Assembly (NCBI GenBank): GCA_021772565.1
Contig: JAJFLR010000092.1
Coordinates: 1 to 62,510 of the forward strand
Reading direction: 5' to 3'
DNA from: Opitutales bacterium
GTDB taxonomy: Bacteria > Verrucomicrobiota > Verrucomicrobiia > Opitutales > JAJFLR01
Length of the DNA: 62,510 nucleotides
Shown here one piece after another: positions 265-62,152 of this stretch. The first letter of the stretch is position 1, and the number at the start of each line of letters is the position of its first letter. Position numbers and translations under genes: made by a program. The notes below the pieces were generated by a model. The model was given only the letters and a program-made list of their open reading frames with translations. It made no database searches and was not told the DNA's origin.

Positions 265-909
265 ATGTTAAAAATCATGAATAAAAATAAATTAATTATG
301 TCTCAGAAATCAATGAACAGTAAGTTGAAATATACGCAGCAATTAATGGGTACACTGATTGTCGCCTTATCACTTATTGGCTCTATGGCCACTAATGCCT
401 ATGGCGTAATCGTCATAAACTTTTCAGAGACGGCCGGCAATGTCATCGCAACCACTTCCGGCTCATACACTGTGCCGAACGTCACGCTGACGCCGCTAAC
501 CGTTACGAGTGTGACATTCTTAGGTGACACCGAACAATTCTATCATCTAAATAACCCAACTCTCAACTTTGCTCCCGGTGGTGTCCGCATTGTAACGACT
601 TTGAATACTAATATGAGTTCCAGCACAGGAGACACCTTTGGATACTCTGCGGATTCGGTAGCACTCGACTCAACTGTCACGCAAGGTTCGACGATAACCC
701 CTGTTACTACTTGGACTTGGTTATCTAACACAATATCGGGGATTGGACTTGGATCTTTGACTACAACGCCCACTGTCGTATATACTGCTGTCTCTGGTGG
801 AGATACAATTCAATTTGCCCTTGCTGCTGTTCCAGAGCCATCAACATACGCTTTTATTTTAGGTGCATTAACCTTAGGAGTAGTTGCAGTTAGAAAACAG
901 AGAAAATAG
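265..909 (+). CDS. PEP-CTERM sorting domain protein, function unknown
   Basis: A 214-residue secreted protein. A hydrophobic segment at about residues 28-46 (LMGTLIVALSLIGSMATNAYG) acts as a signal peptide. The middle is Thr/Ser-rich with a beta-type composition and no recognisable catalytic motif. The last 26 residues are a textbook PEP-CTERM tail: the VPEPS motif, then a hydrophobic helix, then a basic RKQRK end. In this family the tail is known to be cut by an exosortase (EpsH/XrtA type) and to target the protein to the envelope; no exosortase is encoded here. Several in-frame ATGs lie in the first 28 codons, so the exact start is uncertain. A strong hairpin terminator follows, so the gene is probably monocistronic. 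Confidence 0.85.
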   Translation: MLKIMNKNKLIMSQKSMNSKLKYTQQLMGTLIVALSLIGSMATNAYGVIVINFSETAGNVIATTSGSYTVPNVTLTPLTVTSVTFLGDTEQFYHLNNPTLNFAPGGVRIVTTLNTNMSSSTGDTFGYSADSVALDSTVTQGSTITPVTTWTWLSNTISGIGLGSLTTTPTVVYTAVSGGDTIQFALAAVPEPSTYAFILGALTLGVVAVRKQRK

Positions 910-967: not shown

Positions 968-1119
968 TGCATATTATGACGATATCTTACATTACAGACC
1001 TCAGTAATTTAATCGTTATTTGTAACTACTCACGTCAATTTAGATGTAATATTGGTACCTACTCAGCTTGGCACCGGATATCAACTATTCTTCTGAATTT
1101 CATTGTAGGGCCTCTGCTT

Positions 1120-1281
1120 GGAGGCTGTTGAAAAACAGTAAGACTACGCAATTGTCATTGCGAGAAGCGAAGCGCCGCGGCAATCCAGACCGTGGAATGC
1201 TGATAGATTGCCGCACCATCATGCTGATGGCTCGCAATGACAAAAGTGTATAATATCTTTTGCTGTTTTTCAACAGCCTCC
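1120..1281. mobile_element. MITE-like element with 19-bp perfect terminal inverted repeats
   Basis: A 162-bp element opens with GGAGGCTGTTGAAAAACAG (1120-1138) and ends with the exact reverse complement (1263-1281). The inside is a second palindrome: TGTCATTGCGAG near 1154 pairs with CTCGCAATGACA near 1240, and GCGGCAATC pairs with GATTGCCGC. It carries no transposase, so it would need one supplied in trans. A degenerate relative lies at about 61978-62152. Short open frames across it on both strands are by-products of the palindrome. Confidence 0.82.
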
Positions 1282-1313
1282 TTGCGGAGTACCTCAAGTT
1301 GCTTAGTCTTCAT

Positions 1314-1380
1314 ACAAGGCATCGAACAAGTTCGAGTCCTGCAAAATTAGATTTAAAAACCTGGTATTTATAAATATGCT
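1314..1380. repeat. Dispersed direct repeat, copy 2
   Basis: Second copy of the repeat found at 3-60: 23 exact bases (1314-1336), then a diverged match that includes a shared GGTATTTATAAATATG-like tail. It lies 32 bp beyond the right end of the MITE-like element. Confidence 0.8.
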
Positions 1381-1423: not shown

Positions 1424-1534
1424 CCCGATTTATCTCTTTCGTTGTCGTTGTCGTTGTCGTGATCGTAATCGAGAATCAACGAGAATCAACGATTACGATC
1501 ACGACAACCACTTCGCTGACAACGAAATATCGGG
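1424..1534. repeat. Long imperfect palindrome with a TCGTTG triplication
   Basis: GTTGTCGTGATCGTAATCG (1453-1471) has a perfect 19-bp inverted copy at 1490-1508. The loop contains GAGAATCAAC twice in tandem (1471-1490). Outer arms also match (CCCGAT at 1424-1429, ATCGGG at 1529-1534), and the left arm contains a tandem TCGTTG run. The DNA would form a long cruciform or RNA hairpin. No gene is credible across it. Confidence 0.88.
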
Positions 1535-2245: not shown

Positions 2246-2482
2246 GTAACTACCTACCACAAAGATGTAGTTAAGAATTCTTAACAATGAATATTAAAGT
2301 AAGCCACAGATGAAACACAGATTTTTCAGGTGATGGATTGCTTCGTCATTATATTCCTCGCAATGACAATCTACAATCCGAATTCTCAAATCTTAAATTC
2401 CTATATCTGTGTTTCATCTGTGGCCAAAAAAATCTTACAAATCAATATGAAATACAATAACCTCAATGAGGTAGGTAGTTAC
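2246..2482. repeat. Nested palindromic repeat element
   Basis: Two nested perfect inverted repeats occupy most of the gap between hicB and the ATPase. The outer pair is GTAACTACCTACC (2246-2258) with its complement at 2470-2482. The inner pair is GCCACAGATGAAACACAGAT (2303-2322) with its complement at 2405-2424. Between the inner arms is half of the ATTGCGAG-type repeat (2340-2372). No open frame is credible. The GTAGGTAGTTAC arm recurs at 31038-31049 in another hairpin. Confidence 0.85.
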
Positions 2483-2539: not shown

Positions 2540-3736
2540 TTACTTGAGATACCCGGCAATATCAAATGCCGAAACATGAAACCGTCCTTTTCCAATTTTT
2601 CGTGTTCCGCTTATTCTACTAATAAGCACCACATCAGTTTCTTTAAATCTACCGGTTCGATCAAATATTTCAGCTATCTTGAATAATGGTAAAAATGATT
2701 TTTTCCCTGGCATCTCGGACCATTTTGCATCAAAGATACGAATTTTATCATTTGGTCCCTGAATAATAAAATCGGCTTCACGATTTTGTTGATCACGATA
2801 AAACCATAACGACCATTCAGGACGATAATTGCTCAGCCATTTAGAAATTTCTGAATGTACAAAGTTTTCCCAAACTTTTCCGATTAATGTCGAATTGATT
2901 AATGACTCACCGGATAATCCAAGAAGAAAGCAAAGCATACCTGTATCGTTAAAATACAATTTGGGAGATTTAAAAAGTCGCTTACCAACGTTTTCAAAAA
3001 ACGGCTCAAGTAACGTTACCTGATTACTTGCTTCAAGAGCCGATATCCATTCATTGACCGTAGGCTGAGAAATTCCAACATCTCTTGCTAATTCCGACTT
3101 ATTTAGTAATTGACTACTTCGTGCCGCACAAGCTCGAAGAAAACGCTCAAAGTCTCGCAGACTTCCAACATTCAAAACCTGTCGTAAATCACGCTCCAGA
3201 TAAGTGGCTAAATAACTTTGAAAAAATTCTCTTTCTGGTATTGCACGGTCTGCCCATAATTCAGGAAATGTTCCTCTAATCAGTAATTTAGCATGTGATG
3301 CGATATCGTCGGTTTTCAAGCCGGATAATCCTATCTCTCTTACCGTGAGACCAGGTAAGCTTAGTATGACACAGCGTCCGGCAAGACTTTCGCTCACTTC
3401 TTTCATTAACGTAAATTTCTGAGACCCTGTCATAATAAAACGGCCTTTTTTCTGCCTGTTGCGATCGATTTCAATTTTTAAATGTCGCAATAATTCCGGA
3501 GCGTACTGCACCTCATCTATCAACAAAGGCTGGGGATGATCTTTAAAAAAACTTTCGGGAGATTCTTCCGCCTGCTCAGCCAAAATACGTGAATCAAGAC
3601 TTACATAACTATAGTTGGGAAATAACTTTTGCAACAGAGAAGTTTTACCTGCCTGGCGTGCTCCGGTAAGAATTAAAGCCGGAAACAATTGAGAAAGCTC
3701 AATGATTTTATTTGAAAGTTCACGTTCGATCCACAT
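2540..3736 (-). CDS. AAA ATPase with C-terminal DUF4143 domain
   Basis: A 398-residue cytoplasmic ATPase. The Walker A motif GARQAGKTS is at residues 25-33 and the Walker B LLIDEVQ at 71-77; a sensor-like TGSQ follows near 103. The C-terminal half has the DUF4143 layout, including a winged-helix-like segment (ELARDVGISQPTVNEWISAL) and a PD-(D/E)XK-like stretch (EADFIIQG, then IFDAKW). These proteins are widespread in bacterial accessory DNA and their role is unknown. It stands alone, and the palindrome-rich region lies on its 3' side. The protein is complete and of the usual length for the family. Confidence 0.88.
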   Translation of the reverse strand: MWIERELSNKIIELSQLFPALILTGARQAGKTSLLQKLFPNYSYVSLDSRILAEQAEESPESFFKDHPQPLLIDEVQYAPELLRHLKIEIDRNRQKKGRFIMTGSQKFTLMKEVSESLAGRCVILSLPGLTVREIGLSGLKTDDIASHAKLLIRGTFPELWADRAIPEREFFQSYLATYLERDLRQVLNVGSLRDFERFLRACAARSSQLLNKSELARDVGISQPTVNEWISALEASNQVTLLEPFFENVGKRLFKSPKLYFNDTGMLCFLLGLSGESLINSTLIGKVWENFVHSEISKWLSNYRPEWSLWFYRDQQNREADFIIQGPNDKIRIFDAKWSEMPGKKSFLPLFKIAEIFDRTGRFKETDVVLISRISGTRKIGKGRFHVSAFDIAGYLK

Positions 3737-48658: not shown

Positions 48659-48884
48659 AATTTAAATCTTTTAACAGATATTATCAGCGGATCAATGATG
48701 ATTTTTAAAATGCTTGAGTTTAATTCTGGATCGGGAATCTCTATTACTAATCTATTTGTTGTAGAATCTACGCTTGTCTGAGTAATTCTCTATTCTTATC
48801 ATAGAATTTATACTGGTTCTGGAAAATAATTTCACAAAGTGATTTGAAAAAGTTATGAAGGCTCAAGTTACATAGATTACTTCG

Positions 48885-48998
48885 TCTAGCCGTCGTAGCA
48901 ATAGGCTACTATGGCGGAGTAGGCTCGCGTTGCTCCTCGCAATGACAACGGTGTTTCCCGTTGTCATTGCGAATTCGACTTTAGTCGAATGTGGCAAT
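48885..48998. repeat. ATTGCGAG-type palindrome, inverted pair
   Basis: Contains CGCAATGACAACGG (48938-48951) and its exact complement CCGTTGTCATTGCG (48958-48971), a 14-bp stem with a 6-base loop, and a flanking GGCAATCCATCTGAC. The left part (TCTAGCCGTCGTAGCAATAG at about 48888) resembles the CTAGCCGTAGCCTATTG repeat at 50.3 kb. The rest of the 48659-49381 gap is AT-rich with no credible gene. Confidence 0.8.
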
Positions 48999-49381
48999 CC
49001 ATCTGACTTGGCTATTGGCTAAAATACAAACGGCTAGTTTAATACTGTCTGCTCTCTCAGTCAAATTGTTGTTGTCAAGTTTTCTGTTTGAGCGGAATCG
49101 TATTAAAAATACATTGAGAATAAATTATTCCACCATGATTAAAATAGTAGGTTCCGATTACTATCGGAAGCGCATCTGCGAACAAGCTTGGCTCCACAAT
49201 ATTGGCAATACGACGGATGATCCTGATTTTACATCGGGGTTCTCTACCACCCAAATGTCAAATTTAATATTAATTCAGTGCTCACCCGAATGCCCAAGTG
49301 CGTTCCACCCCCAAATTTTCACTTTGGCTTTCTGCTCGGTGGCAGATGGCAATTAATAATAATAAATAGAAATGTAATAAT

Positions 49382-58396: not shown

Positions 58397-58672
58397 TATA
58401 GCATCTGCCATAAGAAATTTCCGAAATAAATCAGTGTATGCAATCAATAGATGTAAGTCAGATAGATTGCCACACTCTGCTTTGGCAGAGCTCGCAATGA
58501 CAATTTAGGTTTTTACTTTGTCATCGCGAGGAGCAGCACGACGTGGCGATCCATGAATTTTCTAGCCAGAACTTTTACGAAATGCTAAACGACTTTATTT
58601 TAATATGCTGCTAAACATAATTGTTACAGAACATTCTATCTATTTTGGAAATTTCTTATGGCAGATGCTATA
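58397..58672. mobile_element. 276-bp element with 26-bp perfect terminal inverted repeats
   Basis: The left end begins TATAGCATCTGCCATAAG and is 26 bp long (58397-58422); its exact reverse complement is at 58647-58672. The inside carries an inverted pair of ATTGCGAG-type repeats (GAGCTCGCAATGACAA near 58493 facing TTGTCATCGCGAGG near 58520). There is no open frame inside. The terminal TA on both sides may be the duplicated target. It resembles a MITE; related ends occur at 3818-3853 and 21518-21530. Confidence 0.85.
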
Positions 58673-61977: not shown

Positions 61978-62152
61978 CTGGTAGTACTACACTATTGTCA
62001 TTGCGAGAAGCGAAGCGACGAAGCAATCCAGATCGTCGAATCTAGGCGGCTATCTTGCAGGTGGCTCGCAATGACATATGGGGGTAAGTCATTTACGTTA
62101 ATTCGTTTAATCTATCCCGCTGTTACTTTCATTTTTCAATAGCCTCCTCTGA
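61978..62152. mobile_element. Degenerate second copy of the MITE-like element
   Basis: TGTCATTGCGAGAAGCGAAG (61997-62016) repeats the inside of the element at 1120-1281 almost exactly, followed by CAATCCAGATCG, and CTCGCAATGACA (62065-62076) closes the inner palindrome. A right end TTTTTCAATAGCCTCC (about 62133-62148) is a worn copy of the TTTTTCAACAGCCTCC terminus. The left terminus is mostly lost. Confidence 0.75.

What the first reader, a model, noticed from the sequence alone, without database searches (positions are those of the whole stretch)
1120..1281. MITE-like element with 19-bp perfect ends and an inner ATTGCGAG palindrome
A terminal inverted-repeat shell surrounds a second, unrelated-looking palindrome, giving a two-layer hairpin. 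A worn copy at 61978-62152 keeps the inner part best, which suggests that the inner palindrome is the conserved unit and the shell its vehicle.
Basis: seen in the sequence. Interest (0 to 1): 0.55.

Follow-up and report, generated by a model that had tools for sequence, protein, structure and literature searches.

The report
Repeat hairpin nested inside mini-transposon
This is a small jumping element without genes that has landed in the loop of one kind of repeated DNA hairpin and carries a second, very widespread repeated hairpin inside it; such boxes within boxes are common in this bacterium and show how different mobile hairpins stack into one another.

Summary
The joined flanks match a paralogous empty site of the same genome without a gap. 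Fourteen two-ended copies were cut out of the fetched loci; all 14 hold the inner palindrome and lie in a GTAG-type REP hairpin. In 6 of the 7 copies with a direct duplication, that duplication is the hairpin loop.

The inner palindrome is a dimer of a cross-phylum REP-like unit (TGTC-ATTGC...GCAAT-CCA) with a hypervariable, covarying tip. It resembles the published CGTC REPs, said in 2013 to lack a dedicated transposase. Small GIY-YIG nuclease genes lie beside such repeats here and in other bacteria; I recall, unseen, that this partnership is published (Ssn, 2025).

Here about half of the tested unit clusters (33 of 66) sit in inverted-repeat shells of at least four kinds; elsewhere 5 of 136 and 0 of 15 did. 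But the shell ends are about as conserved as the inner part, and shell C can carry other cargo. No transposase with these ends was found.

The parts
1105..1116 (+). left part of the GTAG-type REP hairpin that was hit: GTAG 1105-1108, stem arm CTCTG 1112-1116
1117..1120 (+). target duplication CTTG, left copy (= loop of the REP hairpin)
1121..1138 (+). left terminal inverted repeat GAGGCTGTTGAAAAACAG
1153..1187 (+). first half of the inner REP-like dimer: tag TGTC, stem ATTGC/GCAAT, tip AAGCGAAGCGCCGC, tail CCA
1204..1242 (-). second half of the inner dimer, tip CCATCAGCATGATGGTGC, tail CTA
1263..1280 (-). right terminal inverted repeat
1281..1284 (+). target duplication CTTG, right copy
1285..1293 (+). 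right part of the hit REP hairpin, stem arm CGGAG 1285-1289
1318..1342 (-). second, degenerate REP of the same GTAG dimer (GGCATCGAACAAGTTCGAGTCCTGC)
   Evidence: by eye
61978..62146 (+). worn copy of the longer shell-A subtype: inner dimer 61996-62076 with a 9-base deletion, right TIR kept with one mismatch, left TIR lost
58397..58672 (.). shell C element: 35-nt ends, 94% complementary, round a dimer of the same inner family (58465-58501 -, 58520-58551 +) in the opposite arrangement
48809..48999 (.). remnant of shell D: left end TATACTGGTTCTGGAAAATAATTTCACAAAG, then an inner dimer whose first half has a further palindrome in its tip
   Evidence: shell D end and first half by eye
2303..2424 (.). 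another kind of inverted-repeat shell (perfect 20-bp arms GCCACAGATGAAACACAGAT) round one inner half at 2336-2367 (-); a weaker inverted repeat, 71%, at 2228-2268/2460-2500 outside it

Best explanation
A non-autonomous DNA transposon (MITE, shell A) with 18-bp ends that inserts into the loop of GTAG-type REP hairpins and duplicates that loop. At the apex of its own hairpin it carries, as a passenger captured before the family spread, a dimer of an independent cross-phylum REP-like repeat of CGTC type. Shown: boundaries, target duplications, paralogous empty site, position in a GTAG hairpin in 14 of 14 copies, independence of inner unit and shell. Inferred: movement in trans by a cut-and-paste transposase not present or not assembled here; that the inner unit is the partner, and probably the single-strand cutting target, of small GIY-YIG nucleases, as in the Ssn/NTS pair of Neisseria (recalled); that other mobile palindromes in this genome captured the same repeat separately, because the shell families mostly have their own dimer types.
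For: Copies and ends. Duplications. GTAGGGC lies near one edge of the element at the same distance in 14 of 14 copies (11 exact, 2 with one change, 1 with two); 1 of 2000 random window places has it exactly. Joined window flanks align over 103 columns with 7 mismatches and no gap to C74, and the element in place stops the alignment at the loop; a second pair (L016/L350) shows the same place occupied differently. 86 uninterrupted GTAG hairpins of the target form against 1 control. Inner unit without this shell elsewhere. Inner unit in several shells. Fixed frame and covarying tip. GIY-YIG genes beside such repeats.
Against: No transposase with these ends: PF05598 has no match, and the 7 PF01609 loci show no paired ends of this kind. 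Only 7 of 14 copies have a direct duplication, and the restored hairpin folds better than shuffles by z -2 or less in 8 of 14 only; for the window copy z is +0.1. The loop of the C74 empty site reads CTAG, not CTTG. Covariation of the whole dimer on 17 copies is no better than shuffles on most measures. The GIY-YIG link is by position; no cleavage was tested; the strict hairpin motif was found beside 3 of 16 strong and 0 of 13 weak GIY-YIG hits in the phylum, and one of the 5 small own genes has no unit in its 3.2-kb locus.
Confidence: 0.78

Rival explanations
1. Apex insertion: the inner repeat entered ready-made MITE hairpins, and repeatedly, because loops of extruded hairpins are preferred landing sites for every mobile palindrome here; nesting is then the result of a targeting rule, not of capture before amplification.
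For: Shell A sits in GTAG hairpins in 14 of 14; another 25-nt palindrome sits at the same loop position in L350; tips of several units hold a further palindrome; shell C exists with other cargo.
Against: The 14 two-ended shell-A copies share alignable left spacers between end and dimer, and none without the dimer was seen apart from a 35-base hairpin with shell-A-like ends at C33:37249, which may be one; this fits one capture per shell family. Duplications round the inner dimer were not looked for.
Confidence: 0.3
2. The two-layer hairpin works as RNA: a 3' end or attenuation structure between convergent genes, kept by selection on transcripts.
For: Strong RNA fold; it lies downstream of the + ORF 265-909 and downstream of the - ORF 2540-3736.
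Against: The + ORF has its own terminator-like hairpin at 929-964; insertion with duplication and dispersed copies are explained by mobility alone; no Rfam match at gathering threshold in the window.
Confidence: 0.08
3. One reading: the inner palindrome drives spread and the shell is only its packaging.
For: The inner unit is far more widespread than the shell and occurs in several shells.
Against: TIRs about as conserved as the inner part; insertion boundaries, duplications and target belong to the shell; shell C without the unit.
Confidence: 0.1

Closest known systems
CGTC-tagged REPs (Di Nocera et al. 2013, PMC3733652; outline with abstract, passages and section 7 read)
   Same: Tag TGTC (their text allows CGTC changed to TGTC), AT at the stem base, tail CCA in most, dimers, several phyla; Halothiobacillus neapolitanus dimers lie within 41-bp palindromes
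   Different: Outer stem of 5 bp and a long hypervariable tip instead of an 8-9 bp stem and 4-5 nt loop (that paper notes other loops in three species); here in several shells and beside GIY-YIG genes, while that paper reports no dedicated transposase
REPs as IS targets (Tobes and Pareja 2006, PMC1525189; passages read) and Coxiella QMITE2 with a GTAG REP hit by IS1111 (PMC5896051; passages read)
   Same: Mobile element inserted in REPs; ISRm22 with 6-bp duplications, some copies unmatched, explained there by recombination
   Different: Here a gene-less element with 18-bp TIRs whose duplication equals the hairpin loop, itself carrying a second repeat family
Ssn family of GIY-YIG single-strand nucleases with NTS repeats in Neisseria (2025; recalled, not held, nothing seen)
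   Same: Small GIY-YIG gene beside TGTC/CGTC-type repeats; the N. gonorrhoeae relative of the own protein lies among CGTC hairpins
   Different: Cleavage untested here; repeat has a hypervariable tip and is packed in transposon-like shells
Anabaena variabilis GTAG-15 dimers within TATAGGA...TCCTATA palindromes (PMC3733652, section 7 read)
   Same: REP dimer inside a longer palindrome with TATAG ends, like shell C
   Different: Other REP superfamily; no further nesting mentioned in that section

Membership tests
MITE | terminal inverted repeats | tested here: met
   18 bp, perfect in the window copy; 14 two-ended copies
MITE | target site duplication | tested here: met
   direct in 7 of 14 copies: CTTG x3, CAAG x2, CTTA, TCAAG; paralogous empty site
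MITE | short, too small for a transposase gene, several copies | tested here: met
   159-210 bp, 14 copies
MITE | related autonomous element with the same ends | tested here: inconclusive
   none found in a draft of 124 contigs; only two Pfam transposase families were searched for this
CGTC REP superfamily (inner unit) | CGTC/TGTC tag | tested here: met
   TGTC in 151 of 151 own units; the search word itself held GTC
CGTC REP superfamily (inner unit) | tail mostly CCA | tested here: met
   CCA 83, CTA 65, CAA 3 of 151 own units
CGTC REP superfamily (inner unit) | 8-9 bp stem and 4-5 nt loop | tested here: not met
   5-bp outer stem plus variable tip hairpin; so called CGTC-like only
GTAG REP (flanking hairpin) | GTAG at one end of a short palindrome in many copies | tested here: met
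   86 sites against 1 control
GTAG REP (flanking hairpin) | RAYT gene flanked by the repeat | tested here: inconclusive
   17 Y1_Tnp matches, some pieces of one gene; GTAGGGC hairpins on both sides of the C26 gene; the others were not examined systematically
Ssn/NTS-like pair | small GIY-YIG protein encoded beside its repeat | tested here: met
   4 of 5 small own genes; 28 of 39 loci share a word of 14 nt or more between flanks, 0 of 39 shifted controls; strict motif at only 3 of 29 phylum loci
Ssn/NTS-like pair | site-specific cutting of the single-stranded repeat | not testable with these tools
   needs protein

The most novel reading that the evidence does not exclude
In this genome several unrelated mobile palindromes share one landing rule: they enter the loop of a hairpin that is extruded at the time, so that the duplicated target is the loop itself (5-nt loop, 5-bp duplication in L009), and successive arrivals build nests of up to five layers (shell C, GTAG dimer, shell A, TGTC-ATTGC dimer, tip hairpins in L016; shell B in place of shell C round L010). 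Single-strand nicking of the inner repeat by small GIY-YIG nucleases may help its capture by transposons.
Probability: 0.22. Interest if true: 0.75.

Novelty: new variant of a known kind. Interest (0 to 1): 0.52.

Why it matters
What moves the CGTC type of REP was left open in 2013. Here relatives of that type sit next to small GIY-YIG nucleases and ride in gene-less transposons, which makes two routes of spread testable in one genome. The loop-equals-duplication pattern would also give a structural rule for how some elements choose REP hairpins.

Tried and rejected
Helper transposase: the ends were searched genome-wide; in 51 other genomes of the order, 15 have one or two sites at 1 mismatch, those in one genome on different contigs, and the reversed control has 6; PF05598 has no match; PF01609 has seven matches without paired ends of this kind. 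Other transposase families were not searched for this. A pattern of shell plus inner part in genome contigs found nothing (the own genome may be left out there).

Covariation of the whole dimer on alignment A1: cells paired 93.8% against 93.3% shuffled (73 of 500 shuffles as high), covariation score reached by 166 of 500, only 'cells with a change on both sides' high (6 of 500); so covariation is shown for frame and tip of the half unit, not for the dimer. An alignment of half units came out misaligned because some coordinates I gave were wrong and was not used.

The first GIY-YIG profile was built with some wrongly framed rows (minus-strand loci) and run on 80 of the 117 loci; its two hits are strong, and I keep only their positions.

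Rows left out: clusters closer than 200 bases to the end of a fetched stretch; 5 of 29 phylum loci, as cut by contig ends. One of the 33 positive clusters (L077) owes its match to the repeat itself. In one search overlapping end pairs inflate shell C to 33 and shell A to 15 rows; 14 is the number of distinct shell-A elements. Loci for shells B-D were fetched because they hold GTCATTGCGAG, so their share with the unit is biased. The shell-C regions were chosen as places where no unit was known.

Paper searches; listings were capped. None of the papers listed pairs small bacterial GIY-YIG genes with REPs as far as titles, abstract starts and term counts show; 33 papers hold TCATTGCGAG (20 listed, none about bacterial repeats by title); no paper holds any of six longer words of the repeat. 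The Ssn paper is recalled only.

Full report
What is there. The window is contig C116 of a 3.57-Mb draft genome in 124 contigs. The element folds into one long hairpin with three inner hairpins, z about -11 as DNA and as RNA. Its limits are 1121-1280: the flanks carry CTTG on both sides (1117-1120, 1281-1284), and in copy L015 the base next to GAGG changes together with the duplication, CTTA.

Copies. A search of the own genome gives nine copies over the whole or nearly whole length at 86-100% identity, then longer and partial ones. The end word gives 43 sites with up to 2 mismatches, 6 for the reversed word. Fourteen distinct elements with both ends were cut out of the loci fetched, 159-210 bp; all 14 hold the inner unit. 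A 35-base hairpin with similar ends and no unit stands at C33:37249. Pairwise identity over the 14: left TIR 0.946, inner 0.896, right TIR 0.871, left spacer 0.789, right spacer 0.608. So ends and inner unit are both kept and the spacers drift.

Target. In all 14 a GTAGGGC word stands at the same distance from one edge of the element (offset 10 of the 26-base flank in 13, offset 9 in L009): 11 exact, 2 with one change, 1 with two; 1 of 2000 random window places has it exactly. Seven copies have a direct duplication: CTTG three times, CAAG twice, CTTA, TCAAG. In six of these the duplication is the loop of the restored hairpin in the predicted fold, including the 5-nt loop TCAAG in L009; in L002 it is 4 of 5 loop bases. 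Three of the other seven have mirror-image flanks (L004, L005, L010) and four have mismatched ones, as recombination between copies would give. The restored hairpins are short: z is -2 or less in 8 of 14, and +0.1 for the window copy. Uninterrupted hairpins of the target form number 86, 1 in the control. The joined flanks of the window copy align over 103 columns, 7 mismatches, no gap, to a paralogous stretch near the start of C74 whose loop reads CTAG; with the element in place the alignment stops at the loop. L016 against L350 shows the same place taken by shell A in one and by a 25-nt palindrome in the other. GTAG at the end of a short palindrome is the mark of GTAG REPs (PMC3733652, abstract and passages). 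The genome has 17 Y1 transposase (RAYT domain) matches; one gene, on C26, has GTAGGGC hairpins on both sides.

The inner unit. It is a pair of inverted halves: tag TGTC, stem ATTGC...GCAAT, tail CCA or CTA (TGTC in 151 of 151 own units; CCA 83, CTA 65, CAA 3; the search word itself held GTC and AT). The third stem pair is T-A in 109, C-G in 43, other in 4 of 156 halves found with a loose word, and T-A in 72, C-G in 15, T-G in 1 of 88 distinct halves found with a stricter word that allowed only these letters. Between the stem sides sits a tip that differs from copy to copy yet often stays a hairpin: of 85 distinct tips of 14 nt or more, 52 have a stem of 5 bp or more, against a mean of 13.9 and a maximum of 22 after swapping 3' halves. 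These are copies, not independent events. On the 17 aligned whole dimers covariation is not better than shuffles on most measures.

The inner unit is not tied to this shell. GTCATTGCGAG occurs 165 times, control 0. Of the 100 places listed, 99 were read: two-sided shell A 17 (4 of them also within shell C), shell C 20 more, B 3, D 5, no known shell 28, the rest one-sided or cut short. Without using known ends, 33 of 66 testable unit clusters have an exact inverted repeat of 12 nt or more in their 200-bp flanks; 0 of 400 random window places do. Elsewhere this is rare: 5 of 136 clusters in loci of named genomes, control 2 of 348, and 0 of 15 in class genomes, control 0 of 54; those loci were picked by the repeat. 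Among 383 other genomes of the class, 12 match, and all 20 matches listed cover only the inner part (2 candidates scored per genome). Shell C has 166 ends, control 5; 2 of 8 two-ended copies fetched where no unit was known carry another palindrome instead (L342, L347). Shell B ends (GTAAGCGTTCACAG) have exact 8-bp duplications in L010 and L024 and one with a mismatch in L021. In this window the inner unit stands in five places, each within or beside a shell or shell remnant: shell A at 1121-1280 and worn at 61978-62146, shell C at 58397-58672, a shell-D left end at 48809, and a 20-bp perfect inverted repeat at 2303-2424.

A protein partner. The own genome has 6 GIY-YIG matches; one lies in a 488-aa UvrC-like ORF and 5 are small; four small ones were confirmed by Pfam. 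Four of the 5 have a unit within 400 bp, two of these sharing one unit. With 6.8% of the window within 400 bp of a unit, 4 of 5 has a chance of about 1e-4 if they were independent, which they are not quite. Starting from P0001, tblastn found 32 plasmid-collection records; I read 15, one or two per genus. CGTC hairpins number 29 within 500 bp of the genes (15 kb) and 23 in the other 105 kb: on both sides in two Shinella, Rhizobium CIAT894, Aeromonas, Azospirillum, Neisseria gonorrhoeae and Neorhizobium, on one side in Photobacterium, none close in Planktothrix, two Sinorhizobium, Spirosoma, Novosphingobium, Sphingobium and R. tumorigenes. A test without any motif: 28 of 39 GIY-YIG loci share a word of 14 nt or more between their two 400-bp flanks, 0 of 39 shifted controls (some are plain direct repeats). 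Against: the strict motif was near 3 of 16 strong and 0 of 13 weak hits in the phylum, with none in controls. Of 80 loci picked by the inner repeat, 2 hold such a gene, 8 and 162 bp from a unit. The PDB holds only two weak matches to P0001, both UPF0213 proteins. Di Nocera et al. [quoted passage not shown] I recall, but could not read, a 2025 report of the Ssn family: GIY-YIG nucleases that cut single-stranded DNA at such repeats in Neisseria and other bacteria. If so, the partnership is known, and what is new is its repeat form here and its packing in transposon-like shells.

How it most likely works. Shell A is moved by a cut-and-paste transposase acting on the 18-bp ends and choosing hairpin loops of GTAG REPs (inferred). 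The inner dimer was captured before shell A spread, as left spacers align in all copies; other shells mostly hold other dimer types (shell A: AAGCGAAGCG and CCATC..GATGG tips; shell C: often GAGCAGCGCGACG and CTCTGC..GCAGAG; shell D: TTCGACTTTAGTCGAA), which points to separate captures; shell B holds some tips like those of shell A. L016 shows five layers: shell C, GTAG dimer, shell A, inner dimer, tips.

What is ordinary and what is not. MITEs, REPs as insertion targets and REP dimers inside palindromes are in print (PMC3733652, PMC1525189, PMC5896051; passages read). The unusual points are the number of different shells round one repeat in one genome, the agreement of loop and duplication, and the variable tip on a fixed frame.

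Noticed in passing
L077 (C1:7500-9400), L090 (C19:12900-13900): Tandem arrays of inner dimers, mostly at about 106-114 bp spacing, without a known shell; the C1 array encloses a small GIY-YIG gene.
   Followed up: partly
L016 (C47) and L350 (C117): Paralogous shell-C copies with a GTAG dimer; five nested palindrome layers in L016, another palindrome in the same loop in L350.
   Followed up: partly
L010 1383-1689 (C102): Shell B with an 8-bp duplication TAAATCAG round a GTAG hairpin that holds a shell-A copy.
   Followed up: partly
L342 (C14:961-1236), L347 (C23:2-251): Shell C with a different palindromic cargo and no inner unit.
   Followed up: no
L102 (C33:37249): A 35-base hairpin with shell-A-like ends and nothing inside, next to what looks like a degenerate inner unit.
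   Followed up: no
window 1441-1511: Another palindromic repeat rich in GTCGTTGTCG; similar sequence at the start of C74 (L045).
   Followed up: no
L125 1447-1500: The GIY-YIG protein P0002 begins with VECPEPVEG before the domain, which looks like translated repeat sequence.
   Followed up: no
window 265-909: Short protein with a PEP-CTERM-like end (VPEPSTYAFILG..VRKQRK read by eye; weak NCBIfam matches below cut-off), followed by a terminator-like hairpin 929-964.
   Followed up: no
unit tips such as L081, L103, L296: A long palindrome with CGCCATAGTAGC..GGCTACGACGG lies inside the tip of several inner units.
   Followed up: no
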